This document shows positions 5,232 to 25,027 of a stretch of 35,062 bases of DNA, one piece after another. A model generated the notes under the pieces. It made no database searches. It was given only the letters and a program-made list of their open reading frames with translations, and was not told where the DNA came from. Origin of the DNA: Solirubrobacterales bacterium (GTDB lineage Bacteria; Actinomycetota; Thermoleophilia; Solirubrobacterales; Solirubrobacteraceae). The DNA lies in NCBI GenBank assembly GCA_027306855.1, contig DAHUYZ010000020.1, forward strand, positions 1 through 35,062, read 5' to 3'. Positions within the stretch are counted from its first letter, which is position 1; each line of letters starts with the position of its first letter. The position numbers and the translations under genes are program-made.

Positions 5232-6458
5232 TCATTCCGAGGCGGTCGACGTTTGAGCTCCGGCGAGCTCCGCGTCGCCGAACGCGGTTGTCAGGCTCAG
5301 CGCGGCTCGTCGCTGCATCGTATCCTGCACCAGCGCATCGCTGTCGACGCGCGTGCGCGGAACGCGCCCGACAAACCTTTCGGCGGTCTGACACACGACC
5401 AGATCGGCGCCTGCTCGCTCCAGGTAGTCGGGATCCCATCCGAACGGGATCCATACAAAGTGGACCTCCCGGAATATCTGTGCGAGGAACCAAGAAAGAC
5501 CCTGGTAGCTTTCATCGCCAAACCCATACGAGTCGCCGAACAAGACAACCGTCCGAGGGTCGGAGGCGTCATCGCGCCGGAATATGCGACGGACACCGAT
5601 ATGGCCGCCAACGCTCGACACTTCCGGCCAGTTGTCAAACACGATCTTCGACGCCGATGCCGTCGCGAGTTGCCGATTGATCTCCACGATCGGCGGCGTG
5701 AAGTGTCTGCCGAGATCGCCGCTCATCACGTATGGGACATCCTTCTTCGGTATCTCATCCAGCAGCGTCGGCGAACAACCCAGAGCCTCGACGGTCAGCT
5801 TCGCGACGAGTCGATTGCCGCATGTCGTCAGATGGCTGTCTGTGCGCAGGTAGGTCTCGCCATGTGAACGGGCATCGCGCAGCGCGTCGCATGGATATGT
5901 GAGCGGCAGCTCACCTTCGCGCAATAGACGTAAGATCGGCCTCAGCTTCCCGGACGAAGCGTGATTGTGAGGGAACAGATCGTAGTAAACCGCGAGCTTA
6001 TCCGGCATCACCAGCCAACAAGTCGCACAACCCAACCTGTGAGCGTCTGATTGCCGCTCCGCCATCAGCGTCCGCCACTGCCCAAGCCAGTCCTCGGCCA
6101 TCGGCAGCTCTCCTCGATACGTGGCGAGATTGTCGTTGCTGCCGCCGCAGAGAAACAGGTGACCTTCGGCGCCAACCATCGCGACCCCATCGGGTGATAC
6201 GGTGCCGACCGGCTGGGTAAACTCAGCATTCGCCGCTGACCAGCAGTTGAGATAAGAAGGACCCACCTCCGCGTTGTCGCGGGCAGCGCGCTTGTTGCGT
6301 CGAGCCGCGTACTCCTTCGAAGCCAGCACACCATCGAGGAAGGCGCTCACCGTGCCGACCTGCATCCACATGTCGATCTCCTGCGAAGACGGTCGGCGAT
6401 CGAGGAGCTCGCTATACAACGCCTCTATGTGATCGGCTCGCAGGTCGCGCTCGGGCAT
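5232..6458 (-). CDS. AlgX/AlgJ-like SGNH acyltransferase with DUF4214-like N-terminus
   Basis: 408 residues. Residues about 90-360 resemble the AlgX/AlgJ SGNH-hydrolase-like domain that O-acetylates exopolysaccharides. The GAEGHLFLCGG motif (96-106) matches the AlgX-type G--GWLF start, TDSHL (206-210) supplies the Asp-His pair (D207, H209), and VVLFGDSYGF (304-313) supplies the nucleophile S310. Residues about 7-52 (IEALYSELLDRRPSSQEIDM, then SAFLDGVLASKEY) resemble one DUF4214 repeat, a module often found on surface or glycan proteins. No signal peptide or membrane helix is visible, although AlgX and AlgJ act outside the cytoplasm, so location is uncertain. Start: the ATG at 6458 lies eight bases after a TATATT box. 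It is divergent from a GT4 gene, and the likely role is decorating the locus glycan with acetyl groups. Confidence 0.75.
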   Translation of the reverse strand: MPERDLRADHIEALYSELLDRRPSSQEIDMWMQVGTVSAFLDGVLASKEYAARRNKRAARDNAEVGPSYLNCWSAANAEFTQPVGTVSPDGVAMVGAEGHLFLCGGSNDNLATYRGELPMAEDWLGQWRTLMAERQSDAHRLGCATCWLVMPDKLAVYYDLFPHNHASSGKLRPILRLLREGELPLTYPCDALRDARSHGETYLRTDSHLTTCGNRLVAKLTVEALGCSPTLLDEIPKKDVPYVMSGDLGRHFTPPIVEINRQLATASASKIVFDNWPEVSSVGGHIGVRRIFRRDDASDPRTVVLFGDSYGFGDESYQGLSWFLAQIFREVHFVWIPFGWDPDYLERAGADLVVCQTAERFVGRVPRTRVDSDALVQDTMQRRAALSLTTAFGDAELAGAQTSTASE

Positions 6459-6511: not shown

Positions 6512-7744
6512 ATGGTAATGGACGATCTGATCGTACAGATGCACTATGGCGTCATGCACCCGATGTTTCGGGAGCAGCTTTACGCCGCACCATCAGGGTA
6601 TTCCTACAGATCATGCCATCCATACCTGCAGGTCAACGACGAGGGGCCTAAGCGCATAGCCCAGAATGCTCGGCACTTTGCCCACGGTAGACGAGCTGCT
6701 GAACGGCTTGCGGTCCGTACGCTTTCACGAGTCGGCTACGTACATCGGGTCCAAGCCCGCACCATGCGCGGCGCAACCCTGATCCACTCGTGCGAGCGAT
6801 TGCTGTTGAAATCGCCGTTGCCATACGTACTCGACTTCGAGCATGCATTGCTGTTCGTCCTCTATCAACGTTTAGCGCTGGACCGCCCATGGGCTCGCAC
6901 TTGGCTTATGCGCGCGCTCAAGGATGAGCGTCTTCGCGTCCTTCTCCCATGGACAAACTTTGCCCAGCAAAGCCTTCTTACGATTCTCGGGCAGTCAAAC
7001 ATAGAATGGCTGCGCCCGAAGATCGAAGTCGTCTACCCAGCGATCCGGCCCGCCGTTGCGCATGCCCGCAAACGATCCCAAGGGCCGTTTAGGTGCTTGT
7101 TCGTCGGTACGGCGTTCTACGAGAAGGGCGCAGTCGAGACGATTCGCGCTATCCACCGAGTGGCGGCGGCGCACGCAGTCCGCCTCGATCTCGTAAGCTA
7201 CGCTCCTCCACGGTGGGCAACCCGCCTGGCCGACGATAAACTCGTTACGTACCATAAATCCGGTGAAGCTGACATTCGGGCTCTCTACAATCAGGCTGAC
7301 GCGCTGGTCTTCCCGTCTCATATGGACACGTTCGGCTTTGTGATCCTCGAGGCCATGGCTCACGGCATACCTGTCATCGCACCGGCGCATCCACCGTTCG
7401 ACGAGATCGTCGCTGATGGCGCGTCAGGATTGCTGTTTGCGGCGGAGAACCAGCTCTTTGACAAAGACACCACATGCCGATTCGCGAAGACGCTTCCTCC
7501 GCCTCGTCGCTTCCAGCGAGAACTGAGCGCCCCGTCGGACCATTATGTCGACGGTATTGCGACAGCTATCGCACGGCTCGCGGAAGACCAAGATCTGTAT
7601 CGCCACTTGGCGGAAGGCGCATATCAGAGCGTGTGCAACGGTACCTTCTCTATAGATGCACGCCGGCGGGCCTTAGCCGATGTGTACGCTGCCGCTCTCA
7701 ACGAGGCAGATACCACTCCACATATTGACCGCACGCTCGCTTGA
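6512..7744 (+). CDS. glycosyltransferase family 4-type
   Basis: 410-residue GT-B enzyme expected to transfer a sugar from a nucleotide donor in the cytoplasm. The C-terminal half is typical of GT4: FVGTAFYEKGA (197-207) opens the donor domain, and FPSHMDTFGFVILEAMAHGI (267-286) followed by PVIAP is the signature. The first glutamate of the usual EX7E pair is replaced by D272, with E280 kept, a substitution seen in some members. The N-terminal half has conserved GT4-like GATLIHS and LDFEHA segments. Codon use includes many lower-GC codons (ATA, TTA, CGT), unlike genes after 14 kb. Start choice between ATG 6512 and ATG 6518 is unclear, since no ribosome site is evident. Its last 47 bases overlap the 3' end of the opposing membrane-protein gene. 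Acceptor unknown. Confidence 0.85.
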   Translation: MVMDDLIVQMHYGVMHPMFREQLYAAPSGYSYRSCHPYLQVNDEGPKRIAQNARHFAHGRRAAERLAVRTLSRVGYVHRVQARTMRGATLIHSCERLLLKSPLPYVLDFEHALLFVLYQRLALDRPWARTWLMRALKDERLRVLLPWTNFAQQSLLTILGQSNIEWLRPKIEVVYPAIRPAVAHARKRSQGPFRCLFVGTAFYEKGAVETIRAIHRVAAAHAVRLDLVSYAPPRWATRLADDKLVTYHKSGEADIRALYNQADALVFPSHMDTFGFVILEAMAHGIPVIAPAHPPFDEIVADGASGLLFAAENQLFDKDTTCRFAKTLPPPRRFQRELSAPSDHYVDGIATAIARLAEDQDLYRHLAEGAYQSVCNGTFSIDARRRALADVYAAALNEADTTPHIDRTLA

Positions 7745-10022
7745 GCGGAACCGTGTGGACCGGCTTCTCGTTGGTCGCCCAGAGTCCGTCAACGTAAGTT
7801 GGTATGCCCATGGTCAACGCCGTGTTTTGAACGTGAAAGCTGACCGGAACGTCTTCTCGGCGTGTCACCGTGATTTCCCCGATCGGCCAGACGTCCCCCG
7901 CACGATCGAGGTTTGCGGGAAGGGTGACGTGCCGGCCCCTGATATCGACTTCGATGGGATGGGGGCTCGTGTAGGGCGCCGACAGCGACCAGCGACCGGG
8001 ACTCAGACGGATCCGCACGCGGGTCGTGGAGTCGGGAGGCTGGGGAGGCACCGCTACCACGATGTTCGGGCTGCCGACGGCAGCTACCCCGTTTAGGTGA
8101 GCCAATCGGCGCCCTGATGCTGTCTTGCATTCCAAAAAGGCGCCCGGACCAGGCCCGTCGACGACGGTGCGCATTTCAGGTGTGGGTCCTTCTCGCCGAT
8201 AGACCTCGTAGTAGCTAGTTGTCCGTATGAGCCTCATGTTTGGAGGAGGAGCGGTTCCAGCGATGTTGCGCGGCGCGACGACATACTTGTAGCGATTGAG
8301 AACTTCCGCGGGGATGTCGCTGAATTCCAACGGCTCTCCTGGGGTCCAGTGGGCCTGTGGCCGGAACGGCATCAGCGGGTAACCGAGAAACGGTTGATCG
8401 ACGGGGGTGCCGGCAAGCTCCCATTGGATGAAGTCGTCCCACCCGAGGAAGAGCGTCTTTGCCTTGCCAAGCGATGGCCGCAACGATCTGAGGTCGCTCG
8501 CATGGACAGTCGGTCCGACGTAGGCGATGCGCAATGCTTCGACGCTCGTGCCCAGCGCTGCCCATCCCAGTAGTCCCGCGACTCCAAGGCGCAGCGCACC
8601 GGTAAGCGACAGCCACGATTCGCTGCGGTCGAGCTCGACCAGCCAACGCGTTGCAACGAGCATCACGAGCGGAGCCAGGATCACCAACGCCTTCGCGGTC
8701 ACGTATGGAGACTGCTTGTGGTCGGAGTAGATCCAGATCGCAGTCGCCACACCGGTGGCTATCGGCACAGTCCATGAGTCTTTACGGAGCCACCAGATCC
8801 CGCCGGCGATCGTGAGGATCAGCCCGAATGCGACGAACATTCCGACATGGAAGAGGTCTTGTGCTGGGAACCGGTAGTCGGCGATGTCCCACATCCCGAA
8901 GACCTTCCAAAAGGAGAGCGGCTCGGCAAGGTTCCCGAGATTATTGATCGGCACGCCCGTCCCACCGCCGACGCCTACATTGGCCGTATAGAACCTAGCC
9001 ATGCGGCCCAGTTGAGGCGCCGCCAGCACAGCCAATGCGCTGCAGCCGATCAGCGCGGGTATGGCACTGGCGCGTAAGGGGTCCAGCATGGCCTTGGTGG
9101 ACGGCAAGCGCAGCCCGGAGCGCGCCCCCAGCAACACCAGCCAGAGTGCAAGGGTGCCGAGGAACCAAGGGAGACCGGTGACCGAGTAGACCGACAGCGA
9201 GCCACCGACAATCAGCCCAAGCGGCACCCAGCGCAATCGTCCGCTGGACTCTGCGGGCACGTGACGTGCCTTTCCCGGCATCAGGAGTCCCAGCGCAATC
9301 GCGAAGCCGAGCACAAACAACGCTTGCATGATCTCCTTGAATGAGCCCTGCCCGTAGTAGGCAACGACCATGAACGTGCACGAGGTCATTGTCGCCACGA
9401 ATGTCTTTGCGGGCCAGCTCGCCCGCCGCATAGCAGCGACGGTGGTCCAGGCAATCAGCAGCGGGACCGCCATCGTCTCCCCCGCGAACGCATAGTCAAC
9501 CCGTACGCCGAGGATCTGGGCCAGCACCGCGCAGAGGCCGTGCGGCCCAACCGGATAGCTTGCGTCCAGGCTCGTCACGCTCGCCACAGACGTCGACCTG
9601 ATGGCTTCCGCCCACAACAGGTGCGTGGCCATGTCGTTGTCGAACGAGACTCCCAGCGTGCCAGCACGGTTGCTTGCAAGGAACGGAATGAGAACCATGA
9701 ACAAAGCGGGCCCCGCGACCATGAGATCAGTCGCGCGAGGTCGTTGCGCAGGGTTGCGAATCATCACGGCGATCCCGACAACGCAAAGGACGAGCAATAC
9801 AACGGCTACGGTGCTCGCGCGCCCCGGCGCGTGTATCGCGGGAGCACAGATCAGGAGCAGCAAAGCCAAGCCCACGGGGGCGGAGAGGAATGTCCAGGTC
9901 CGCGCTCCGCACAGCCAGCAGGCTCCTTGACCCAGGATCAGCGCGCCGGCGCACGTGAGCGCGGCAGCAGCTACCACGCCGATCATCCCCAATAGAATAT
10001 GGGCTCCCCCGACATGTCGCAT
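7698..10022 (-). CDS. large GT-C-like integral membrane glycosyltransferase
   Basis: 774 residues from the ATG at 10022 (a GTG at 10037 adds five). The first about 500 residues hold roughly 11-13 hydrophobic helices. The loop after the early helices contains SFDNDMATHLLWAEAIRS and LDASYPVGPHGL, the acidic and YPxG loop pattern of actinobacterial GT-C-like (DUF6541-like) membrane proteins. After the last helices comes an extracytoplasmic part of about 270 residues, beta-rich at the end (VRIRLSPGRWSLSAPY, VDIRGRHVTLPANLDRAG) and closing with a CGQYVEW motif. GT-C enzymes use polyprenyl-phosphate sugars on the outer face, and a polyprenyl-phosphate sugar synthase-like gene is divergently placed 68 bases from this start. 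A second protein of the same build lies at 28.7-31.1 kb. Family membership is judged by architecture, so the exact reaction is inferred. Confidence 0.75.
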   Translation of the reverse strand: MRHVGGAHILLGMIGVVAAAALTCAGALILGQGACWLCGARTWTFLSAPVGLALLLLICAPAIHAPGRASTVAVVLLVLCVVGIAVMIRNPAQRPRATDLMVAGPALFMVLIPFLASNRAGTLGVSFDNDMATHLLWAEAIRSTSVASVTSLDASYPVGPHGLCAVLAQILGVRVDYAFAGETMAVPLLIAWTTVAAMRRASWPAKTFVATMTSCTFMVVAYYGQGSFKEIMQALFVLGFAIALGLLMPGKARHVPAESSGRLRWVPLGLIVGGSLSVYSVTGLPWFLGTLALWLVLLGARSGLRLPSTKAMLDPLRASAIPALIGCSALAVLAAPQLGRMARFYTANVGVGGGTGVPINNLGNLAEPLSFWKVFGMWDIADYRFPAQDLFHVGMFVAFGLILTIAGGIWWLRKDSWTVPIATGVATAIWIYSDHKQSPYVTAKALVILAPLVMLVATRWLVELDRSESWLSLTGALRLGVAGLLGWAALGTSVEALRIAYVGPTVHASDLRSLRPSLGKAKTLFLGWDDFIQWELAGTPVDQPFLGYPLMPFRPQAHWTPGEPLEFSDIPAEVLNRYKYVVAPRNIAGTAPPPNMRLIRTTSYYEVYRREGPTPEMRTVVDGPGPGAFLECKTASGRRLAHLNGVAAVGSPNIVVAVPPQPPDSTTRVRIRLSPGRWSLSAPYTSPHPIEVDIRGRHVTLPANLDRAGDVWPIGEITVTRREDVPVSFHVQNTALTMGIPTYVDGLWATNEKPVHTVPLKRACGQYVEWYLPR

Positions 10023-10090
10023 CTTCGAATCGCCCACCCACAGCTTTCGTCGGGTCGTTCACCGGAGATACCGCCAGCATCGTCAGGCCC

Positions 10091-10813
10091 ATGACCGACC
10101 CGCAGATCCTCATCGTCAGCCCGGCCAACACCGCGGCCGGACGAGTGGGCCGGGTCGTCCGGGATGTAACGCGTGCTTTGCCGATGGCCGACGTGCTCGT
10201 GGTGGACGACGGCTCAGCCGATCGAACGGCGGCCGAGGCATCGGAAGCCGGGGCCATCACGCTGTCCTTACCGGTCAATTCGGGCTATGGCGCCACGCTG
10301 CAGACCGGCTATAAGTACGGGGTTCGCCACCACTACGACGTCATCGGCCAGATCGATGGGGACGGCCAACATCAGGGCGAGTATCTGCCGGTCATGCTAG
10401 AGGCATTACGCCAAGCCGATGCCGATCTCGTCGTCGGATCGCGTTTTCTTGATAGGGACGGCCACTACCGCCCATCGCTGGCCCGTCAAGTCGGCATCGG
10501 ACTGTTCGCCCGAGTCGCATCGGTCGTGACGCGACAACACATCTCGGATCCGACGTCAGGGTTTCAGCTGATGCGCATCGGCGTCGCGCGCTTCTTCTGC
10601 TCCGAGGTCTACCCTACCGACTACCCCGATGCCGACATCTTGATCCTTCTTCATCGTGCAGGCTTCAAAGTACTCGAGGTTCCAGTAAAGATGCGTCCGT
10701 CGTCTGGAAAGTCGATGCATTCCGGTCATCGCAGTCTCTACTACGTTTACAAGATGACCCTGTCGATCTTGGTAACCCTGTTGCGACCCCGTTCCCAACA
10801 TCGCGCATCATGA
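10091..10813 (+). CDS. GT2 polyprenyl-phosphate sugar synthase-like
   Basis: 240-residue GT2 enzyme of the dolichyl/polyprenyl-phosphate mannose or glucose synthase type. VLVVDDGSADRT (35-46) binds the nucleotide, QIDGDGQH (87-94) is the metal-binding DXD region, and SDPTSGFQLMR (152-162) is the conserved acceptor-side motif. Unlike larger relatives it has no added membrane domain, only a hydrophobic C-terminal segment (SILVTLL). The stop overlaps the DUF2304 start in an ATGA (10810-10813), so the two are translationally coupled, an association common in this family. It probably charges the lipid carrier with a sugar for the GT-C-like protein divergent from it. Sugar identity cannot be told from sequence. 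Confidence 0.88.
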   Translation: MTDPQILIVSPANTAAGRVGRVVRDVTRALPMADVLVVDDGSADRTAAEASEAGAITLSLPVNSGYGATLQTGYKYGVRHHYDVIGQIDGDGQHQGEYLPVMLEALRQADADLVVGSRFLDRDGHYRPSLARQVGIGLFARVASVVTRQHISDPTSGFQLMRIGVARFFCSEVYPTDYPDADILILLHRAGFKVLEVPVKMRPSSGKSMHSGHRSLYYVYKMTLSILVTLLRPRSQHRAS

Positions 10814-11211
10814 TCAGTACGCATCTGCGCATCGTCGCGATCGTCGGCAGCCTGGGGCTCTTACTGTTCGTCATCGAGCTGGTGCGCCGTCGCCGTCTGA
10901 AGGAGGAGTACTCAGTACTCTGGATGGCCACCGCCGTCGTTCTCCTCCTGCTCGCCGCTTGGGGTGGACTACTACGCAGTCTGACACACGCGATCGGCGC
11001 GGTCGCGCAGAGCAGTACGCTGTACTTCTTTGGGCTGCTATTTGTGATCTTTTTGTTGCTCCATTTCTCGGTAAGAGTCAGCCTTCTCGAGCGCCGCCTC
11101 ACGGCGCTGGTACAGGAGATTGCTCTCCTCACGGAGAAACGCGCCGGGCCTGCTCAGCATGAGGAGGAACTTGCAGAGGAGGCCCCCGAGGACGACGCGG
11201 TAAACGCGTGA
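10810..11211 (+). CDS. DUF2304 membrane protein
   Basis: 133 residues with three hydrophobic helices (about 8-22, 38-55 and 70-88) and a charged acidic tail (EEELAEEAPEDD). The pattern of ELVRRRRLKEEYSVLW after helix 1, a second helix and a short coiled-coil tail (LLERRLTALVQEIALL) is characteristic of DUF2304 proteins. These typically sit next to polyprenyl-phosphate GT2 synthases, as here. No catalytic residue is known for the family; a role as membrane anchor or partner of the soluble GT2 upstream is an inference. Start and stop both form 4-bp overlaps with the neighbours (ATGA upstream, GTGA downstream), so it is a middle gene of a tightly coupled operon. Confidence 0.85.
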   Translation: MISTHLRIVAIVGSLGLLLFVIELVRRRRLKEEYSVLWMATAVVLLLLAAWGGLLRSLTHAIGAVAQSSTLYFFGLLFVIFLLLHFSVRVSLLERRLTALVQEIALLTEKRAGPAQHEEELAEEAPEDDAVNA

Positions 11212-12044
11212 GTCAAGTCGCGGTCATAATCCCTTGCCACAATGATGGCTTGCTGGTCGAGGAGGCAGTAGTTTCTGTCCGGGAACAGGAGAACACCGAG
11301 GTCGAGCTGGTCATCATCGATGACGCATCCACGGACTCAACAACGATCACGCGACTCGCCGCCCTGGAGCGTAGCGGGGTACGGGTGCTCCGGCTGGAGC
11401 GTAATCTGGGGCCTGGCCCAGCTCGATCGATAGGACTGCGTCATACCTCGGCTCCCTTCGTCTATCCGCTGGATGCCGACGACGTCCTCGTTCCGGGAGC
11501 ATTGACGGCCATGATCGGGACGTTGAACCGTCACCCAACCGCAGGCTTTACTTGGGGAGATTACGCCGTGTTCGGCAGCATGCGCGGCCGATACAAATCG
11601 CCGAGCCGGCCCCTGCCGTGGACACTCACCTACGTAAACCCCTATCCCGTCTGCTCGATGTTCCACCGCGACGTCTTGGTACGCGCCGGAGGGTGGCAAC
11701 TCGCGCAGGGATACGAGGACTGGGATCTATGGATGACGCTCGTAGAGATGGGCGTCGTCGGGATCCCGACCGACCGCGTCGTATACCGGCGCCGCATCCA
11801 TGGAGGGCACCGGCGTCTAACTGTGGACCGCAGACGCCACAAGGCACTCTACGCGACACTCCAAGAACGGCACTCTGAGCTCTTTGCTCAACGCAACGAC
11901 TTACGCCACGAGGAGATGCCAGCAGCCTGGAAGCGTTTAGCTTACCCTGTTCTTTTCGGGTCGCGATCGATTGTACCGCTGCCTGTCGAGAGGCTCATGT
12001 TGCATGCGATGTTACGGCTCGGTGGCGGACTACCAACATGGTAG
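11208..12044 (+). CDS. GT2 glycosyltransferase
   Basis: 278-residue family 2 glycosyltransferase. VIIPCHNDGLLVEEA (6-20) and LVIIDDASTDST (34-45) form the nucleotide-binding start, YPLDADDVL (86-94) carries the metal-binding motif, and YEDWDLWMTLVEMG near residue 170 supplies the catalytic-base region. It starts with GTG at 11208 overlapping the DUF2304 stop as GTGA, and its end overlaps the flippase start by seven bases, so the four genes from 10091 to 13555 are one coupled operon. It has no clear membrane helix and probably adds one sugar to the lipid-linked intermediate on the cytoplasmic face. Donor and linkage unknown. Confidence 0.88.
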   Translation: MSQVAVIIPCHNDGLLVEEAVVSVREQENTEVELVIIDDASTDSTTITRLAALERSGVRVLRLERNLGPGPARSIGLRHTSAPFVYPLDADDVLVPGALTAMIGTLNRHPTAGFTWGDYAVFGSMRGRYKSPSRPLPWTLTYVNPYPVCSMFHRDVLVRAGGWQLAQGYEDWDLWMTLVEMGVVGIPTDRVVYRRRIHGGHRRLTVDRRRHKALYATLQERHSELFAQRNDLRHEEMPAAWKRLAYPVLFGSRSIVPLPVERLMLHAMLRLGGGLPTW

Positions 12045-13555
12045 CTGGCAACAACGCTCCGCCGAGGACACATACAAGCATCGGCGAGAATATCCTCGTC
12101 AGTACGATCAACGTTGTCGCTGTCGTCGGCGCCTCATTGGTCGCTGTCCCTTTGATCATCGACCACATCGGCCTCGCGGGCTATGGACTTTGGACGCTCG
12201 GCCAGTCGTTTGTTATCTACGTGAGCACGGTCGAGCTCGGAGTTGGACCTGCGATATCCAGGTTTGTGAGCGTCCGTCATCGAGAGCACCACGAGGTTTT
12301 ACCAATACTCTGGCTCGCGCTCGGCCTCTATGCGCTCGCCGGACTGGCTCTCATAGTCGTCGCGCATTTCGTGTCAGAACCTCTGGTCGCCCTGTTCAAA
12401 GTCCCGCTTCGGTTTCATTCCGACGCGATCCGCATGACGCAGATATTGGGCTTTGTGGCGTTCGCCGCACTGATGGCCGCCGCGCTCGGACAGGTACTCA
12501 TCGGCCTGGAGCGTTACCGACCGATCACGGTCACGAACGCAACCGGCTCCGGCGTCTTCCTAGGCGCGCTGCTTATCCTGCTTCCGGGGCAAGCGCAACT
12601 GACAGATGTAGCGGACGCTGCGCTGGCGCAGTGGACGGTAGTTGCCGTCACACGTGGCGCTGTCCTGCTGCCGCTGGTGCGCTCCGAACGTCCGCGACTG
12701 CCCGGCTGCGGCACGGTTCGCGAACTGGCCGACTTCTCCGCCCGTCTGCAGGTTGCTGTCATGGCCACGCTGTTCAACACACAGACAGACCGGATCGTCG
12801 TCGGCCTTGTCTCCACAGCCAGGATTCTCGGACAGGTCGGCATTGCGACGCAAGTGGCCGAAGCCAGCCGTTTCCTTGCAAACTCGGCTTTGGCTCCGCT
12901 GATGACCCGCATGGCGGTCACCTACGGCGCCAGCGGCCGCGACGAGCTTGACGCCCTATATGGGCAGTTGCTCAGGCGCTGGCAGCTGCTGATCGTCGGC
13001 TCGCTCGCCATTCTGACGGCTGTGATGCAGCCGATGATCACCGCGTGGCTCGGACCAGGCCACGGCCAGGCCGCCTACTTCGCCGTGCTCCTGACGATCG
13101 CATACGGCTGCAACCTCCTCATGGGTCCGGCCATCGCCTACCTCCGAGCCATCGGCAGACCCGGCTACGAGGGCGTCTACGGCGTCGCGACGGTGGTCGC
13201 CAACGTCCTTTTGACGATCGGCCTGGGGGTGGCGTTTGGGGCCGACGGCGTCATCATCGCAACGCTCATCGCCTACTTGGTGAGCACAATCTGGTTCTCT
13301 CGCCGAGTCGCGGCGCAACTCCCCAGGGTTCCCGAAACGCATCGGACACAGTGGACACGTTCACTAATGGTTCTGATCGTCGCCGCAGCGATCGCGCTCG
13401 GCATTGGACGAATCAGTGTCCTCGCGCTACCGACCGGGCTCGCTGTCGTGGGTGTGGGCCTTGGCGTAACGGTCGCCTTCCTAGTCTACCTGGCGTCAGT
13501 GGTGGGACTAACGCCTATGGTGGGCACAGTGAGACGACTACTACCTACGCGCTGA
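12038..13555 (+). CDS. Wzx-type polysaccharide flippase
   Basis: 505 residues with about 12-14 hydrophobic helices spread evenly, the length and layout of MOP/PST-family flippases that carry undecaprenyl-linked glycan units across the membrane. The N-terminal segment (ENILVSTINVVAVVGASLVA, then PLIIDHIGLAGYGLWTLGQS) matches the family pattern of a first helix followed by a GxxxYGLW-like loop. Mid-protein TDRIVVGL and C-terminal paired helices also fit. The start overlaps the upstream GT2 by seven bases. A flippase in the same locus as an ABC-type O-antigen exporter (22.9-25.0 kb) suggests two export routes or two glycans. The next gene is convergent, 74 bases away, with no clear terminator between. 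Confidence 0.85.
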   Translation: MVAGNNAPPRTHTSIGENILVSTINVVAVVGASLVAVPLIIDHIGLAGYGLWTLGQSFVIYVSTVELGVGPAISRFVSVRHREHHEVLPILWLALGLYALAGLALIVVAHFVSEPLVALFKVPLRFHSDAIRMTQILGFVAFAALMAAALGQVLIGLERYRPITVTNATGSGVFLGALLILLPGQAQLTDVADAALAQWTVVAVTRGAVLLPLVRSERPRLPGCGTVRELADFSARLQVAVMATLFNTQTDRIVVGLVSTARILGQVGIATQVAEASRFLANSALAPLMTRMAVTYGASGRDELDALYGQLLRRWQLLIVGSLAILTAVMQPMITAWLGPGHGQAAYFAVLLTIAYGCNLLMGPAIAYLRAIGRPGYEGVYGVATVVANVLLTIGLGVAFGADGVIIATLIAYLVSTIWFSRRVAAQLPRVPETHRTQWTRSLMVLIVAAAIALGIGRISVLALPTGLAVVGVGLGVTVAFLVYLASVVGLTPMVGTVRRLLPTR

Positions 13556-14593: not shown

Positions 14594-17500
14594 TCAATCC
14601 TTCCCCTCTCCTGAACGAGGTGCCGGCTGCCCTGAGTCGTTTGAGCACTCTATGGACGCTGGCTCGCCGGTGTCCAGGTCTATGTAGCATCGGCGTTGCG
14701 GGTCGGCAGGATGATGGTAGGCACGCTGGAAGTAGTTGGGATATCCGCCGACAGTGACCTCATCGGCACTTGGAAAGCGCCCCTCGGCCAGATCGCCACG
14801 CACAAAGAAGGCATTGACCGCGCACAGGTCAGTGTGCACGAGCTGGTAGCCCTTGCGTCGACCGAGCTCGCGCAGCGCCCCGAGAGACGCGCCGTAGTAA
14901 TCGGTCCCGTCCCAGCCGGAGGTCAGGTCCCGTGGCTGCACGAGCTTGCGGGCAGGGTCGAGCGCGCTGTTGTACTCGATGACCACGACCCGTGGCCGGT
15001 AGTGCTCGACGGACTCCCATATCCAGTAGTCGGCGCCATCGACGTCGATCGACAGCACACTCGGCTCCGGTGGTACATGGGCATCGGCGAACAGCGTCTC
15101 GACATTGGCCGGCGTGACGATCGCCTTCGTGGTCTGTACGCGATCGTTGGCGCGGTACTTGAGCGCAAGGCGCCCGAAGTGGCTGGCGTCGGACTCCATG
15201 AACAGACCACTCCAGCCGACCACGTCGGCCAGGTACACGCAGTTGCCCTCGCGACCGGACTCGGTGCCGAACTCGATGAAGTAGCACTCACCGGCCCCAA
15301 TCCGAGTCAGGATCTCCGCCAGCACACCGTCCTCGCCGTTCTGGCTGAACACCCGCAGCTCGAACGGCGTGAGGGGACCGGTGCGTTCATTCTCAGCTTG
15401 ACCCTCGCCCAGCACATCGTAGCGCTCGCTCATCTGGGCCAACGCCAGATAGAACGCACGGTCGGATTCCAGACCACCGCCCATCTCCATGCGATCGACG
15501 CGACCGCCCAGCGCTGTGAGCGTTCGCATGACGTCGCCGACCACCTCGCTCTGGGCACCCACGACCGCCGGTAGCACCTTCAACTGCTCCTGTGAGCGCA
15601 AACGCGCCAGGATCTGGGCGTTAGATCGCAACAGGCGCTCATGCAGTGCCGAGGTCTCCACCTCGACGGCATGCAGCGATCCAAGCAGTTCGTCATCGAT
15701 CGCCTGCTGGTGGGCGCTGAGAGGGCGCATCAGTCGAAGCGCGCTCTTACGCGCAGCACGACGAACGACGTTCCGACCGGCCGGCAGGCTTGCGCCTGGT
15801 CCTTGCGTGACACGCGCAGTCAGATCACCGCTGACGACCCGCGCTCCATCGGATGCCGACACCTCGCGCAACTTCGTATCTGAGCGCAGATGATCGAGCC
15901 TTTGGCTCATCGCTTCGCCGGCTGCGGTCGGTGAATGCGTCGTGCGAATCGCTTCGGCCGCACGGCCCCCAAGCGCCGCCGCCGCGACGCGATCGTCGTA
16001 GACAAGACGCATAAGCTCGGCCGCATGCTCGACGCTGGGCTCAGCCCACTCCCCATCAGGCGGGTATGGAGGCGCGCCCGCACCAATCGGCACGAGACCG
16101 TAGTCGACCAGCAAGCTGTTCTCGGCGGTCATGAAATCGAGGTTGCCGGAGTAGCCGGTTGCAATCACGGGCTTACCCAGATACATAGCCTCGGCCATCG
16201 TGAGGCCAAACCCCTCCGAGCGATGCAGCGACACGTAGCAGTCGCATGTGGCGGTGAGAGCATTCTTGTCGTTGGGAGTCATGTAGTTGTCGACGACGCG
16301 GATATCGCTGCGCGCTTTGACTGCGGCGAGGAGGCGCTCGTGGTTTGCCGCGTCATGTTCGGCATTCATGCACTTGATAACCAGATTAGGGCCGCTGCCG
16401 GAATCGAATGCGCGGGAGAACGCCTCCACAACTGCGATCGGGTTCTTGCGCTCGAACACACTGAGATAGTCGAACGTAAACAGGAAGCAAAACCCGTCGG
16501 GAATGCCCAACTCGGCCCGCGAGCGCGGAACGATCGTGGGAACCTCAACCGGGATGCGAGTCGTCGTTACCGGGACACTCGCTACCGGTGAGAGCGCATC
16601 CGCGACATGGGCTGTCGGCGCCCACACCTCGTCCACCAGCGCGAACGAGCTCAGCCACTTGCTTGGAAAGCTCGTCACCTCCCAGAACCACAGGCCGATC
16701 GAGTAGCGGTCCGCGAAAAAGCTCTCCCCCGCCCTGCGGGCGAACTCAGGCAGCATGTCGGCGTTTACGCAGATAACGTTTATTTGGTACTCGGCTTCAT
16801 CGGGCTCGAACTGAACGAAGTCATGTTCCTGGCGGCTCAGTGGCCGCATTGCGCTGTGCACCGGCAGCAACGAGACGCCAGCCGCGTCGAGCGCCGCTAT
16901 CACCTGCCGCGCCACCTCCCCGACTCCATGCTCGGATTGAAAGTAACCAACGACATTCACACCCACACTCCGTGGGCCCACGCCATCTGCGGCTGTGTCC
17001 GCCACGACCGAGCCACGCGCATCAGCCTCCTCACCTTCCCCGTCGACCTCCGAGGAGCGAGCCGATTCGACCTGAGCCGCGACCAGATCGTGCGTTGCGG
17101 TGTCGATTGCCGGAAGCAGCGCCAGCATCGGCGTCTCGATCGTGCCCGATCGCTTCGCCCAATCCAAGAACGCCTGGTGGTCGGCGCCCGCGACGTCCGG
17201 AAAGCCTCTTTGAACATCTTCCCTGGTGCCATAGACATCGGCCAGCAGCCGGCTCACTCCGGCCGGCGCCCCTGGGGCGGGCGCGGCCAGCCAGCGCACG
17301 AACGACTCGCACCCCTCGTCGCTGAACGGCGATCCCACGACCTCGCCGTGTTCGCTGGCGACACCGTGCAGCTTGCGCAACTGCCGGGTGAACTCGACGC
17401 CGATGGGAAGATGCGCGTATGTGTAGGGCCATGCCTTCGCCTTGGTGTATCCGGCGGCAACGACCTCTGCCGCGTACTCATTGCAGATCCGCTGCAGAGC

Positions 17501-20977: not shown

Positions 20978-22744
20978 CTACGAGAGCAAGCCGTGCCGTC
21001 GAGCGGCGTCGTCGAAGCGGGGGCCCGGGACGTGGAAGACGCCCCGCCCGCGGGTCTGCGGGCTGCCTATCTCCAGCACCTGGGCCTCGCGCAGCTCCCG
21101 CAAAATACGGCTGCCCTGCACCTCGGTGACGTCGAGCATGTCGGCAACGTCGCGCGGCTTGACGCTCGGGTGAGCCTGAAGGTGGCGAACGATGAACTCC
21201 TCCGCCTGCTCCGACGATGTCGTGATGTACGGCAACACCTCCCTCAGCTGCTCACGTGCGGAATCGGAGAGTCGGAAGCGAGGCCTGGCGCGAGTGCTGC
21301 CGTGCGCAGAATTCAGCAGCCCGAGCACGTGCCCGCGACGCAACGCCTCGGCGGCCTCCTGCGGCAGCTTCTGAAGCAGGTATGTGAGCTCGTCGGGACC
21401 GACGTTGGCGGCCTGCATCAGCGCGTGCAGGATAAGCGCAAGGTCGACGTCGTCTTGGGCCTCCTCCGGTAGAGAGGCCATCAAAGCGACGACGGGGGCC
21501 GACGGCTCGCCCCCCGTGAGCACGCAGCGCACGCGGCCCCCGCGGTCCGCGAACGTCGGAGTCGAGTGCCCGGCGCTGACCATGTCCCGGAACATCCTGT
21601 CCACCCCCACTCCCTCCTGCTCGGCCAGTCGCAGGGAGCGGAAGACGCCTGTCAGGGTCGCGTTCCGCGGATGTGAGCGCTCGGAGATGATGTTGTCAAC
21701 CCGAATGCCCGGCGGAAAGCCCCCTGGCGAGGAGACCACCAGCTGCGAGCCTGTGAACTCCACGAGCACGGGGTCCGGGCTGCGATAGTCGCGGTGGATG
21801 AGCGCATTGACAAGCGCCTCGCGCACCGCGCGATCCGGGATGAGGCGTATGCGCGGGCGGACACCGCTGGGCAGCTGCAGCTGGCGTTCCTCGTTCACCG
21901 CGTCGATGCGGGTCTTGAGCTCCGCATATGCTGTAAGAAGCGGCGCTCTTGCCTCCAGCCGGTCCACGGACGAGGCACCGGGCGCCTTGCGGCGCTGGTA
22001 GTCGACGAGTACCCTCTCGCCGGTAACGAACAGGATCTTGCCCGCGTTCGTCAACCGATCGTCACGCCCGAGCACCCCGAGGGAGCGCAGGAGGTCCGGC
22101 GTGGGTCGCGCCGCAAGCGCCAGACGCGAGTCCTCACCTGTGCCTCGCAGGTATTCACGGGCGCGGTCCACCGCGCCCTCGGAGACATCGGCGAGGGCCC
22201 CATCGGAGAGTTCGGCTGACCAGTCATAACCAAAGCGATCCTCCTCGGCGTGACGCTGGTCGTCGGCTGTCATCTCGACACAGCGCGTCCCGAGCCGGTG
22301 CTTATACTTCTTGGCCGACCGGTGCAGGCTGTAGCCTCGCTGCACGAGGATGTACAGAAGTCGCACACCGTCCTCGGGCGCGACCTGTACCTCCACCCCC
22401 AGGTGCGGTTCGCTGTAGGCCCAGATCTTCTCCCGCAGCCACTCGGCGTCGATATCGGTGCCGATAAGCGCCGCGTGACCGGTGCCCTTGTCCATTACGC
22501 CGACCACGAGGATGCCTCCCTCCGTGTTCGCCAGGCAGCAGGCCTCCTCCGCGAGCGCCCGCGCGGCCGCGTCGTTTCGGGGCAAGCCGGGGCCGTAGAT
22601 TCCATCCTTGACACGCCGGCCGGCCTCCTCCTTGAAATCCAGCGTCAGGCTCTCGACACTCTCGACAGCGGCTCCCGCCTTGACTTCGGCGATGGCCCGT
22701 CGGGCGACGACCACAAAGGGGTGGCTCGAGAAACCTCGGTCCAT
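20978..22744 (-). CDS. Schlafen/AlbA_2-type regulator with HATPase_c_4 and winged helix
   Basis: 588 residues from the ATG at 22744; a GTG at 22762 is possible but lies inside the promoter palindrome. Residues about 30-150 are a Schlafen AlbA_2 domain (LTLDFKEEAGRRVKDGIYGP, then LANTEGGILVVGVMDKGTG). Residues about 290-400 match the GHKL-like HATPase_c_4 of the same proteins: AVREALVNALIHRDY, FTGSQLVVSSPGGFPPGI, RNATLTGVFRSLRLAEQEGVGVDRM. The last about 70 residues form a winged-helix segment (HPSVKPRDVADMLDVTEVQG, then SRILRELREAQVL). Such COG2865-type proteins are called putative DNA-binding regulators; their ligand is unknown. It lies between the ABC pseudogene and the intact ABC gene, transcribed against both. 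Its promoter sits in a 10-bp-arm palindrome, which suggests autoregulation and possible control of the exporter. Confidence 0.85.
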   Translation of the reverse strand: MDRGFSSHPFVVVARRAIAEVKAGAAVESVESLTLDFKEEAGRRVKDGIYGPGLPRNDAAARALAEEACCLANTEGGILVVGVMDKGTGHAALIGTDIDAEWLREKIWAYSEPHLGVEVQVAPEDGVRLLYILVQRGYSLHRSAKKYKHRLGTRCVEMTADDQRHAEEDRFGYDWSAELSDGALADVSEGAVDRAREYLRGTGEDSRLALAARPTPDLLRSLGVLGRDDRLTNAGKILFVTGERVLVDYQRRKAPGASSVDRLEARAPLLTAYAELKTRIDAVNEERQLQLPSGVRPRIRLIPDRAVREALVNALIHRDYRSPDPVLVEFTGSQLVVSSPGGFPPGIRVDNIISERSHPRNATLTGVFRSLRLAEQEGVGVDRMFRDMVSAGHSTPTFADRGGRVRCVLTGGEPSAPVVALMASLPEEAQDDVDLALILHALMQAANVGPDELTYLLQKLPQEAAEALRRGHVLGLLNSAHGSTRARPRFRLSDSAREQLREVLPYITTSSEQAEEFIVRHLQAHPSVKPRDVADMLDVTEVQGSRILRELREAQVLEIGSPQTRGRGVFHVPGPRFDDAARRHGLLS

Positions 22745-22791
22745 GGGCCAGAAATATAACACGCCGGGGCTGGCGCGCCAATGTTATATTT
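22745..22791 (-). promoter_or_regulatory. promoter and palindromic operator of the Schlafen-like gene
   Basis: On the minus strand TTGGCG (22781-22776), a 17-base spacer, TATATT (22758-22753) and eight bases precede the ATG at 22744, a near-ideal leaderless promoter. The -10 box lies in one arm of a perfect inverted repeat: AAATATAACA at 22752-22761 and its reverse complement TGTTATATTT at 22782-22791, 20 bases apart. A protein bound to both arms would cover the promoter. The right arm also carries a TATATT on the plus strand at 22785-22790, toward the ABC gene. Confidence 0.65.
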
Positions 22792-22858
22792 TGCGGCGGT
22801 CCGACGTGCTTTTTCGCCGTCCAGCCGCGGCGGCGACAGGACTGCCACCTCCCCCCGG

Positions 22859-22871
22859 TACCCTTCCCCGC
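22859..22871 (+). promoter_or_regulatory. leaderless-type -10 box of the ABC ATPase gene
   Basis: TACCCT at 22859-22864 is followed by seven bases and the ATG at 22872, with no space for a ribosome-binding site. The -35 region is poor; a GCGACA string lies 20 bases upstream. The pseudogene copy keeps the same hexamer. Confidence 0.5.
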
Positions 22872-24128
22872 ATGCCCCAACCGGCCAGCTCCTGCGCCCC
22901 GGCGATCGTCGCCGACTCCCTCACCAAGGCCTTCCGCGTCCCCGAGGAGCGTACGCATACGCTCAAGGAGCGCGCGCTGCACCCGCTGCGTCGCACACGC
23001 CACCACACGTTCCCGGCGCTGCGCGACATCTCCTTCGAGGTCGCTCGCGGCGAGTTCTTCGGCATCGTCGGACGCAACGGCTCGGGCAAGAGCACGCTCT
23101 TGAAGTGCCTGGCGGGTATCTACGGGGTCGATCATGGCCAGATCTGGATGGACGGCCGCCTCTCGACGTTCATCGAGCTCGGCGTCGGCTTCAATCCAGA
23201 CCTCGCCGCGCGAGACAACGTCGTGCTCAACGGGATCATGATGGGGCTCTCCCCACGCGAGGCGCGCGCACGCTACGACGCCGTGATCGACTTCGCCGAG
23301 CTGCGCGAGTTCGAGGAGCTGAAGCTCAAGAACTACTCCTCGGGAATGCACGTGCGACTCGCGTTCTCGGTCGCGATCCAGGTCGACGCCGACATCCTGC
23401 TCGTCGACGAGGTGCTGGCGGTCGGCGACGCCTCCTTCCAGCAGAAGTGCTTCGACGTGTTCTATCGCCTCCGCGACGAGGGACGGACGATCGTATTTGT
23501 GACGCACGACATGGGCTCGGTCAACCGCTTCTGTCACCGGGCGCTGCTCTTGGAGAAAGGCGAACAGGCCTATCTCGGCGATCCCTACGAGGTGGCCGAT
23601 CGCTACTTGGAGATCAACTTCGGACGCGAGCCGCAACAGGCGGGGCCTATCATCGACGAACACCGCGGCGGCGATGGCCAGGCACGCGTTCTCGAAGCGT
23701 GGGCGCAGGACGAAAACGGGCGACGCGTGGGCTCGCTGCAGCAGGGCCGGCGTATGACAGTGGTCGCGCTTGTCGAGTTCAAAGCGGATGTCGAAGATCC
23801 GGCCGCGAGCGTGCAGCTGCTCAACGACGATCACATGGTGGTAGCCGTCGCCACAAGCGCCGCAGCACACGAACGCAGCGGCCATTTCCACACAGGCGAG
23901 CGCGCTCTGTTCTCGTTCTCGTTCGACAACGTTCTGGCGCCACGACGCTACAGCACGCTGTTCACGCTCGCGCATCGCGGCACCGGCCTCGACCTCATGG
24001 ATCGCATCGACGACGCATTCTCGTTCGTCGTCACCGGCCCCCGTGCACTCGGGGGCATCGTCGATCTCCCGGTCGATGTCAGCGTCGAACGCGTTTCAGC
24101 TCAGGCGGCACAGGAGGTTGCGCTTTGA
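22872..24128 (+). CDS. polysaccharide ABC exporter ATPase with Wzt-like C-terminal domain
   Basis: 418 residues from ATG 22872, which follows a TACCCT box; earlier in-frame starts run into the Schlafen promoter and are unlikely. The ATPase domain is complete: Walker A GRNGSGKST (67-75), signature NYSSGMHVRLA (154-164), Walker B DILLVDEVLAVGD (174-186) and H-loop H212. The E-L-G-VGFNPD---RDN--LNG stretch (102-121) is typical of the TagH/Wzt/RfbE group. Residues about 260-410 form a beta-rich domain like the Wzt carbohydrate-binding domain, which recognises the finished chain end. Together with the permease overlapping its stop it would pump lipid-linked glycan across the membrane. The C-terminal domain suggests that a terminal modification, possibly the methyl group added by the 1232-residue fusion, is the export signal (inference). 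Confidence 0.93.
   Translation: MPQPASSCAPAIVADSLTKAFRVPEERTHTLKERALHPLRRTRHHTFPALRDISFEVARGEFFGIVGRNGSGKSTLLKCLAGIYGVDHGQIWMDGRLSTFIELGVGFNPDLAARDNVVLNGIMMGLSPREARARYDAVIDFAELREFEELKLKNYSSGMHVRLAFSVAIQVDADILLVDEVLAVGDASFQQKCFDVFYRLRDEGRTIVFVTHDMGSVNRFCHRALLLEKGEQAYLGDPYEVADRYLEINFGREPQQAGPIIDEHRGGDGQARVLEAWAQDENGRRVGSLQQGRRMTVVALVEFKADVEDPAASVQLLNDDHMVVAVATSAAAHERSGHFHTGERALFSFSFDNVLAPRRYSTLFTLAHRGTGLDLMDRIDDAFSFVVTGPRALGGIVDLPVDVSVERVSAQAAQEVAL
24112..24117 (+). promoter_or_regulatory. strong ribosome-binding site fixing a TTG start
   Basis: AGGAGG at 24112-24117 lies seven bases before the TTG at 24125. This settles the start of the permease, because no ATG is found at a fitting distance. 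It lies inside the end of the ABC ATPase gene, so the two are translationally coupled. Confidence 0.75.
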
Positions 24129-25027
24129 GCTATCAAGTCGCCGAGCTCGAGACGTCCGCCTATGGATCCTCGCTTGGCCATCCGATCCGTGGACCGCGCG
24201 CGCTGAGCGACGACTGGTCGCGCTTCTGGCACCTCACCTACAACATCGCGCGCAACGAATTCAAGCTGAAGTTCTTCGGCTCGATATTGGGCTATTTGTG
24301 GCAGGTGATGAGGCCATTACTGCTGTTTGGCGTGCTGTATGTGTTCTTTGTGGTCATCGGCCATGTCGGCAAGGGCGGCAAGCCGGGAGAAACCGCCTAC
24401 GGCGTCCAGCTGCTCGGCTCGATCGTGCTCTTTACGTTCTTCAGCGAAGCCACCACCGGGGCGGTACGCAGCGTCGTGGACCGCGAGAACCTCGTGCGCA
24501 AGATTCAGTTCCCTCGACTGGTCATACCCATGTCGGTATGCCTCCTCAGCTTCTTCAACCTGGTCATGAACCTGATCGTCGTGCTGATCTTTGCCCTGAT
24601 CTCGGGTATACAGCCGATGCTCAGCTGGATCGAGCTGCCCCTGATCCTCACGCTGCTGATTGTGCTCTCTACGGGCGTCGCGATGCTCCTATCGGCCATG
24701 TTCGTCAGCTTCCGCGACATACAGCCGATATGGGATGTCCTTACGCAGGTCCTCTTCTACTCGTCTCCGGTGATCATCCCTGTGGAAACGGTGCGCGACA
24801 AGCTGCTGCACGAGCCGCTGCTCTGGCACATCTACCTGCTGAACCCGCTCGTCACGATCTTCCAGCAGTTCCGCCACGCAATGGTCACCCACGCCGCGCT
24901 GTCAGCCGGGCAGACCCTTGGAAGCTGGGCCGATCTGCTGGCGCCGCTCGGCATCGTCGCCGCAATCTTTCTGCTCGGCTTCTGGGTCTTCAACCGCTCG
25001 GCGCCCCACGTCGCCGAGAATCTTTGA
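24125..25027 (+). CDS. polysaccharide ABC exporter permease (ABC-2 type, Wzm/TagG-like)
   Basis: 300 residues with six hydrophobic helices, typical of ABC-2 permeases for O-antigen or teichoic acid. The soluble start (LSDDWSRFWHLTYNIARNEF) is followed by KLKFFGSILGYLWQVMRPLL, the conserved amphipathic and first-helix pattern. Mid-protein ENLVRKIQFPRLVIPMSV and the YSSPVIIPVETV and LNPLVTIFQQFRHAM segments are also family marks. It starts at TTG 24125 in a TTGA overlap with the ATPase stop and has an AGGAGG seven bases upstream. Together the two make one complete exporter. No further gene follows on this strand until the antitoxin at 25115, so the operon probably ends here. Confidence 0.93.
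   Translation: MSYQVAELETSAYGSSLGHPIRGPRALSDDWSRFWHLTYNIARNEFKLKFFGSILGYLWQVMRPLLLFGVLYVFFVVIGHVGKGGKPGETAYGVQLLGSIVLFTFFSEATTGAVRSVVDRENLVRKIQFPRLVIPMSVCLLSFFNLVMNLIVVLIFALISGIQPMLSWIELPLILTLLIVLSTGVAMLLSAMFVSFRDIQPIWDVLTQVLFYSSPVIIPVETVRDKLLHEPLLWHIYLLNPLVTIFQQFRHAMVTHAALSAGQTLGSWADLLAPLGIVAAIFLLGFWVFNRSAPHVAENL

What the first reader, a model, noticed from the sequence alone, without database searches (positions are those of the whole stretch)
5232..6458. AlgX-like acetyltransferase with a DUF4214-like start and no export signal
The catalytic set D207, H209 and S310 of the AlgX/AlgJ type is present, but the protein lacks a signal peptide or membrane helix although relatives act outside the cytoplasm. 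A DUF4214-like repeat leads it. It may acetylate the lipid-linked glycan inside the cell, or use a non-classical route.
Basis: partly seen in the sequence, partly recalled or inferred. Interest (0 to 1): 0.5.

Follow-up and report, generated by a model that had tools for sequence, protein, structure and literature searches.

The report
Cytosolic cousin of alginate-acetylating enzyme AlgX
This gene encodes an enzyme built like the ones that add acetyl groups to bacterial slime outside the cell, but it and its nearest relatives appear to stay inside the cell, without the usual membrane partner, and probably decorate sugars before they are exported.

Summary
Window 5232-6458, minus strand, encodes a 408-aa protein with an AlgX/AlgJ-type permuted SGNH domain (Pfam ALGX 3e-7; AlphaFold pLDDT 89.5; AlgJ, PatB1 and a DHHW protein at Z about 18-19). 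D207, H209 and S310 are invariant in 63 of 63 aligned sequences. A stop codon three codons before the ATG excludes an upstream signal peptide. The DUF4214-like start is real in fold (phycobilisome-linker type) but below Pfam's threshold. The missing export signal is a clade trait: none of the 63 aligned sequences has a membrane helix by hydropathy, and relatives are fused to GT61, methyltransferase, TPR, sulfotransferase-like and GT2-like regions. In the same bacterial class all 5 membrane-anchored ALGX proteins sit beside an MBOAT acyl shuttle; 0 of 10 of this type do. This genome has no detectable MBOAT or AT3. The oxyanion tyrosine of AlgJ/AlgX is Phe in 63 of 63. Eight close relatives sit within one gene of a GT4 fusion protein like the window's 14594-18292. 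Best reading: a cytosolic O-acyl(acetyl)transferase that takes its acyl group from a soluble donor and modifies a glycan before flippase or ABC (Wzt_C-type) export. Activity, donor and acceptor are untested.

The parts
5232..6458 (-). AlgX/AlgJ-like SGNH domain protein, 408 aa (P0001), no signal peptide or TM segment
6273..6446 (-). DUF4214 / phycobilisome-linker-like helical domain, about residues 5-62
   Evidence: Pfam DUF4214 sub-threshold; AlphaFold model pLDDT 89.2, top VIA rows phycobilisome linkers, Z up to 4.4, rmsd 2.2, 53 aligned
5997..6005 (-). PxK motif P152-D-K154 (first AlgJ signature motif)
   Evidence: P and K invariant in 63/63; motif defined in PMC4148444
5832..5846 (-). RTDSH motif 205-209 holding catalytic D207 and H209 (second AlgJ signature motif, with Leu instead of Trp after His)
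   Evidence: T, D and H invariant in 63/63
5529..5537 (-). GDS motif 308-310 holding the nucleophile S310
   Evidence: S invariant in 63/63
5373..5381 (-). ERF motif 360-362; F362 stands where AlgJ has the oxyanion tyrosine Y348
   Evidence: 63/63 ERF; profile alignment to AlgJ 4o8v; Y348 from PMC4148444
14594..18292 (-). 1232-aa GT4-family fusion protein with weak FkbM-like C-terminus; relatives lie within one gene of the SGNH gene in 8 of 8 close loci
7698..10037 (-). 779-aa hydrophobic (multi-TM by inspection) protein without a family match; relatives in 6 of 8 close loci
6512..7744 (+). GT4 glycosyltransferase, divergent neighbour
22608..24128 (+). Wzt-type ABC ATPase with Wzt_C glycan-recognition domain (true start probably further in)
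24101..25027 (+). ABC-2 permease of Wzm type
12038..13555 (+). flippase-like (MATE/Polysacc_synt) membrane protein
   Evidence: below the curated cut-offs

Best explanation
P0001 is a soluble cytosolic O-acyltransferase, probably an O-acetyltransferase, of a cytosolic branch of the AlgX/AlgJ SGNH fold. S310, activated by H209 and D207, takes an acyl group from a soluble donor, most likely acetyl-CoA, instead of from a membrane MBOAT. It passes the group to a hydroxyl of a glycan still on the cytoplasmic side, made by the neighbouring glycosyltransferases, before export by the flippase or the Wzm/Wzt-type ABC transporter. The N-terminal linker-like domain probably docks it to a partner, the GT4 fusion protein being the best candidate. 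Shown by computation: fold, conserved triad, absence of signal or TM, absence of a detectable acyl shuttle in the genome, soluble-domain fusions, conserved GT partner. Inferred: donor, acceptor, direction of the reaction, docking role.
For: Fold and triad. Cytosolic clade: no A3 row reaches a 19-residue KD mean of 1.6 (0 of 63); of 66 scan loci 64 gave a usable frame and only L026 exceeds it (1.88), in the N-terminus of its GT2-like region. Fusions: GT61 (L081), methyltransferase (L008), TPR (L012), sulfotransferase-like (L080, below cut-off), GT2-like by inspection (L026). MBOAT contrast in the own class: 5 of 5 TM-anchored ALGX genes lie within 0.75 kb of an MBOAT match, 0 of 10 loci of this type do, Fisher p = 3.3e-4. 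tblastn with five MBOAT fragments hit none of 76 stretches over 5 kb, window included, and all 6 TM-type loci. Own genome (92% complete): no MBOAT, no AT3, while the controls rang. Partner GT within one gene in 8 of 8 close loci. Precedents: WssI, a close AlgJ homologue, uses acetyl-CoA in vitro (PMC10302187, passages); CsaC uses acetyl-CoA on a capsule (PMC7501274, passages); TviD is an O-acetyltransferase whose C-terminal TPR region recruits the polymerase of the cytoplasmically made, ABC-exported Vi antigen (PMC9597891, passages).
Against: No activity, acceptor or localisation was measured, and signal absence rests on hydropathy. In the window the GT partner lies 8 kb away. Many Methylobacterium relatives sit in conserved neighbourhoods without obvious glycan genes, so the glycan link is not universal. 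The Trp after the catalytic His, whose W196F change ablates acetylation in P. aeruginosa AlgJ (PMC4148444), is Leu here (7 of 63 rows have Leu). F362 cannot donate the proposed oxyanion hydrogen bond, so the chemistry may differ. An esterase role cannot be excluded. The genome is a 259-contig draft, 92% complete. The 62 relatives in A3 were found through one of two short motifs (EVHFVW, GWD), so that set is selected.
Confidence: 0.6

Rival explanations
1. A cytosolic carbohydrate esterase: the same triad removes an acyl group from a glycan or nucleotide sugar, as a trimming or repair step.
For: AlgJ and AlgX themselves act as acetylesterases in vitro (PMC9487903 and PMC4148444, passages); the canonical SGNH reaction is hydrolysis; the lost oxyanion Tyr and the Trp-to-Leu change depart from the transferase set.
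Against: The closest solved relatives by fold include acyltransferases (AlgX, PatB1); both AlgJ signature motifs are mostly kept; no other candidate acylating enzyme was recognised among the window genes scanned.
Confidence: 0.2
2. A cytosolic acyltransferase or binding protein for something other than acetyl on an exported glycan: another acyl-CoA or acyl-ACP donor, or a small metabolite as acceptor.
For: Methylobacterium stand-alone relatives lie in conserved neighbourhoods without evident glycan genes; the invariant N108 segment and ERF motif distinguish the clade from AlgJ.
Against: The Actinomycetota branch is tied to GT genes, and several branches are fused to glycan-enzyme domains.
Confidence: 0.14
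3. An ordinary extracytoplasmic AlgX-type enzyme that leaves the cell by a non-classical route and gets its acyl group from a partner elsewhere in the genome.
For: Characterised AlgX, AlgJ and PatB proteins act outside the cytoplasm.
Against: No signal or TM in the clade, soluble-domain fusions, no MBOAT or AT3 detectable in the genome.
Confidence: 0.05

Closest known systems
AlgJ/AlgX alginate O-acetyltransferases (Pfam PF16822 ALGX)
   Same: Permuted SGNH fold; DxH then GDS order; PxK and TDxH signature motifs; Foldseek E 3.6e-12 to AlgJ, VIA Z 18.1 over 235 residues
   Different: No signal peptide or TM; no MBOAT partner; block III Tyr replaced by Phe; Leu for Trp after the catalytic His; extra N-terminal linker-like domain; invariant Asn108 segment that the profile aligns to a gap in AlgJ
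PatB1 / DHHW family
   Same: Same fold, VIA Z 18.9 over 254 residues; 32 of 63 members match Pfam DHHW at E up to 0.01
   Different: Sequence motif is TDxH, not TDHHW; PatB1 O-acetylates secondary cell wall polysaccharide outside the cell (PMC9487903 and PMC12148441, passages)
TviD, O-acetyltransferase of Vi antigen
   Same: Acts with a GT4 polymerase in an ABC-exported, cytoplasmically assembled glycan; has a TPR region that recruits the GT (PMC9597891, passage); relative L012 here is ALGX plus C-terminal TPR
   Different: TviD's sequence was not compared here; that it is modelled as SGNH is recalled only; P0001 has a linker-like domain instead of TPR
CsaC, capsule O-acetyltransferase of Neisseria meningitidis A
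   Same: Ser-His-Asp enzyme that acetylates a capsule directly from acetyl-CoA (PMC7501274, passages)
   Different: Alpha/beta-hydrolase fold, not SGNH
WssI of the acetylated cellulose system
   Same: AlgJ-like SGNH that accepts acetyl-CoA in vitro (PMC10302187, passages)
   Different: Membrane-anchored and periplasmic; block III residue Asp

Membership tests
Pfam ALGX (PF16822) | Profile score above the curated cut-off | tested here: met
   30.8 bits against 26.5 for P0001; 63 of 63 A3 members match at E up to 0.01, though some close relatives score below the cut-off
AlgX/AlgJ-type permuted SGNH fold | Block order H then S, with the AlgJ/AlgX fold | tested here: met
   D207/H209 before S310; model matches AlgJ, AlgX, PatB1; atomic triad geometry was not measured
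AlgJ/AlgX | Signature motifs PhiPhiPhiPxK and (R/K)TDTHW | tested here: inconclusive
   PxK and RTDSH present, but Leu replaces the Trp (motifs)
AlgJ/AlgX | Block III tyrosine (Y348/Y328) as oxyanion donor | tested here: not met
   Phe in 63 of 63 rows (alignment; residue numbers)
AlgJ/AlgX and other MBOAT-SGNH systems | Signal peptide or TM anchor, extracytoplasmic site | tested here: not met
   TM-type ALGX of the same class serve as positive control
MBOAT-SGNH systems | MBOAT partner | tested here: not met
   None detected in the genome or in 76 stretches over 5 kb; 5 of 5 TM-type controls adjacent
SGNH-AT3 (OatA type) | AT3 membrane domain or partner | tested here: not met
   No AT3 domain in P0001; no AT3 detected in the own genome
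DUF4214 (PF13946) | Profile score above the curated cut-off | tested here: not met
   20.0 bits against 23.2 for the domain alone
Phycobilisome-linker-like fold | Shared fold | tested here: inconclusive
O-acetyltransferase | Catalytic acetyl transfer to a sugar | not testable with these tools
   Needs an enzyme assay
TviD family | Sequence homology to TviD | not tested
   TviD sequence not fetched

The most novel reading that the evidence does not exclude
A cytosolic, shuttle-independent branch of the AlgX fold that acylates glycans directly from acyl-CoA, with altered oxyanion chemistry (Tyr to Phe, plus an invariant Asn108 segment), and that docks through a phycobilisome-linker-like domain onto a GT4 fusion polymerase so that the acyl mark helps select chains for the Wzt_C-gated ABC exporter.
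Probability: 0.25. Interest if true: 0.68.

Novelty: new variant of a known kind. Interest (0 to 1): 0.5.

Why it matters
Current models of AlgX-type and other SGNH glycan acyltransferases hinge on a membrane shuttle (MBOAT or AT3) that moves the acyl group outward. A widespread branch with the same triad, no membrane anchor and no shuttle would show that the same fold also works inside the cell, and would give soluble, easily assayed enzymes for studying and using glycan acylation. It would also warn annotators that an ALGX match does not imply an extracytoplasmic enzyme.

Tried and rejected
Upstream start or frameshifted signal peptide: rejected, stop three codons before the ATG, and close relatives start with the same linker-like domain. 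Chance match: rejected by fold and invariant triad. Phage or viral origin: no match in phages or viral contigs. Close relatives in plasmids: only under 30% identity, 13 records. L009 was dropped as a chance hit (a LytR-like protein by my reading). L092 was left out of the MBOAT contrast because its catalytic residues are lost and the frame starts at a contig end. L115 is a TM-type protein with a truncated frame; it was kept in the tree but not in the 5-against-10 table (the table is own class only). Rows dropped from A3: L024 (same locus as L013), L038, L058, L082 (frame trouble), leaving 62 of 66 plus P0001. Long N-terminal extensions in several Methylobacterium frames looked like readings past the true start and were not counted as fusions (by inspection). 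The tree splits 5 TM-type rows from the other 36 (98/97), but L115 falls on the other side and several long rows are unplaced, so one origin of the cytosolic type is not proven. Coordinates of the models were not available, so triad distances were not measured. Rfam found nothing in the window. Literature: AlgX, SGNH, cytoplasmic, O-acetyltransferase, capsule; AlgX, AlgJ, PatB, SGNH, cytoplasm; capsule polymerase with SGNH; AlgX with ABC transporter-dependent; SGNH with ABC transporter-dependent; DUF4214; TviD. No title or abstract in those listings described a cytosolic AlgX branch; the library holds only open-licence papers. Passages, not whole papers, were read: PMC4148444, PMC9487903, PMC7501274, PMC12148441, PMC10302187, PMC9597891, PMC3448643.

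Full report
What is there. The gene at 5232-6458 lies on the minus strand and encodes 408 residues. The frame reads stop-R-A-M before the ATG, so no signal peptide can be gained upstream. Pfam ALGX matches residues 130-241 at 3e-7, above its cut-off; DUF4214 matches residues 8-33 below its cut-off. NCBIfam has no match.

Relatives. In 201 genomes around the window's own, 9 have a match including the own genome; one of the nine (L009) looks like chance. A scan of genome contigs gave 66 loci, at 26-56% identity, mostly Methylobacterium plus a close Actinomycetota group. Plasmids gave 13 records at under 30% identity, four of them E. coli, one of these (L010) inside a capsule-like cluster with an ABC transporter. 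Phages and viral contigs gave none.

Fold and active site. AlphaFold on 63 sequences gave pLDDT 89.5 and pTM 0.80. Foldseek's 11 PDB chains at E up to 0.001 are AlgJ, AlgX, PatB1 and a DHHW protein; the second aligner gives Z 18.9 to PatB1, 18.1 to AlgJ and 14.3 to AlgX, with the next unrelated row at 4.9. A profile of the 63 finds AlgJ (1.6e-14), PatB1 and AlgX by sequence. D207, H209, S310, K154, P152, T206 and N108 are invariant in 63 of 63. The two AlgJ signature motifs and their mutants are from passages of PMC4148444: PxK is kept and TDxH is kept, but the following Trp is Leu here. The same paper assigns AlgJ Y348 and AlgX Y328 as the oxyanion donor replacing Asn. The profile alignment puts our invariant F362 (E-R-F) on that E-R-Y (the offset of 70 between chain index and AlgJ numbering was worked out from D190; this second stretch of the alignment scores near zero on its own). 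TM-type ALGX proteins of the own class have D, E or N there.

No export signal as a clade trait. In 63 aligned rows, trimmed to the domain in most cases, the highest 19-residue hydropathy mean ranges from 0.82 to 1.53. Of 66 scan loci 64 gave a usable frame, read from the furthest upstream start, and only one exceeded 1.6, in the N-terminus of the GT2-like region of L026. TM-type ALGX proteins of the own class, used as positive control, reach 2.2-2.6 ahead of the domain. Of 30 further ALGX loci from 27 genomes, many of them the same loci as before, 28 carry E-R-F and none of these has an N-terminal TM segment; one (L107) reaches 1.64 inside the domain; the other two are a TPR-fused protein (L097) and a TM-type protein (L115).

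Fusions. Pfam finds ALGX with GT61 (L081), with methyltransferase (L008), with TPR (L012), and with a sub-threshold sulfotransferase (L080); the region ahead of L026 looks GT2-like to me but has no Pfam match. The GT, methyltransferase and sulfotransferase-like parts use cytosolic donors, which argues for a cytosolic site; TPR says little about location.

No acyl shuttle. In the own class the 5 TM-anchored ALGX genes (G035, G066, G084, G102, G140) lie 0.66-0.75 kb from an MBOAT match; of 10 loci of the present type in 9 genomes none does, and 7 of those 9 genomes have no MBOAT detected (Fisher p 3.3e-4). In 28 genomes of the wider set 11 have no MBOAT; in 13 where contigs can be compared MBOAT and ALGX lie on different contigs; the one neighbouring pair (G407) belongs to the TM-type L115; in 3 the contig could not be compared. 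A tblastn of five MBOAT fragments hit none of 76 stretches over 5 kb, window included, and all 6 TM-type loci. The own genome, 92% complete, has no MBOAT and no AT3 detected, while controls rang. It has a single ALGX protein.

Neighbourhood. In 8 of 8 close loci (7 genomes; L013, L014, L015, L020, L021, L022, L023, L025) a relative of the 1232-aa GT protein of the window (14594-18292) lies next to the SGNH gene or one gene away. Four of these GT proteins were scanned: three end in a methyltransferase domain (L013, L014, L021), one shows only GT4 (L020); the window's own has a weak FkbM match. Relatives of the 779-aa protein 7698-10037 occur in 6 of 8. The window also has a Wzt_C-type ABC ATPase and a Wzm-like permease, a flippase-like protein and several glycosyltransferases. 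ABC ATPase relatives occur in 3 of the 8 loci; Wzt_C was confirmed in one of them. Against a universal glycan link, many Methylobacterium stand-alone members lie in conserved neighbourhoods that do not look like glycan clusters, such as next to a YebC-like gene or near a thioredoxin-like gene (names by inspection).

N-terminal domain. Eight copies align at 32-47% identity to the first, 4 of 8 match DUF4214 and 5 of 8 PBS_linker_poly at E up to 1. The model has four helices, pLDDT 89.2; 17 of 20 listed structure matches are phycobilisome linkers, best Z 4.4, rmsd 2.2, 53 residues, while Foldseek has none at E up to 0.001. I take it as a docking module; that is inference.

How it most likely works. 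The triad and motifs fit a Ser-linked acyl intermediate. With no membrane shuttle and no anchor, the likely donor is cytosolic acetyl-CoA. WssI, a close AlgJ homologue, accepts acetyl-CoA in vitro (PMC10302187, passages), and CsaC shows the logic for a capsule with another fold (PMC7501274, passages). TviD, with a TPR region recruiting a GT4 polymerase in an ABC-exported glycan made in the cytoplasm (PMC9597891 and PMC3448643, passages), is the nearest functional parallel. What is shown is place (by computation), fold and association; the reaction is inferred.

Novelty. The fold, triad and idea of cytosolic capsule acetylation are known; a shuttle-free, anchor-free ALGX branch with an altered block III residue was not seen in the titles and abstracts listed by the searches named under Tried and rejected. 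I call it a new variant of a known kind.

Noticed in passing
L042, L043, L063 and similar Methylobacterium loci, about 10001-10900: Stand-alone members of the same clade (about 310 aa) keep fixed neighbourhoods that do not look like glycan clusters (thioredoxin-like gene, YebC-like gene nearby); their role is unexplained.
   Followed up: partly
L092 (genome G065), match at 45-446: An ALGX relative that has lost the catalytic His and Ser (PRDESWN, GDACIL): a possible non-catalytic member.
   Followed up: no
L010, 11749-12939: E. coli plasmid pYLMB20b carries an ABC-transporter capsule-like cluster with an AlgX-like protein annotated as hypothetical.
   Followed up: partly
7698-10037 and 28730-31129: Two hydrophobic proteins of about 780-800 aa with no Pfam (for the first, for the second) or NCBIfam match; they share BLAST relatives in the close loci, so they are probably paralogues.
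   Followed up: partly
20978-22762: An AlbA_2/RecG-C-terminal-like gene sits inside the glycan cluster, antisense to and overlapping the listed start of the Wzt ORF.
   Followed up: no
L023, 9881-10375: Tandem DUF4214/linker-like copies ahead of the SGNH domain.
   Followed up: partly
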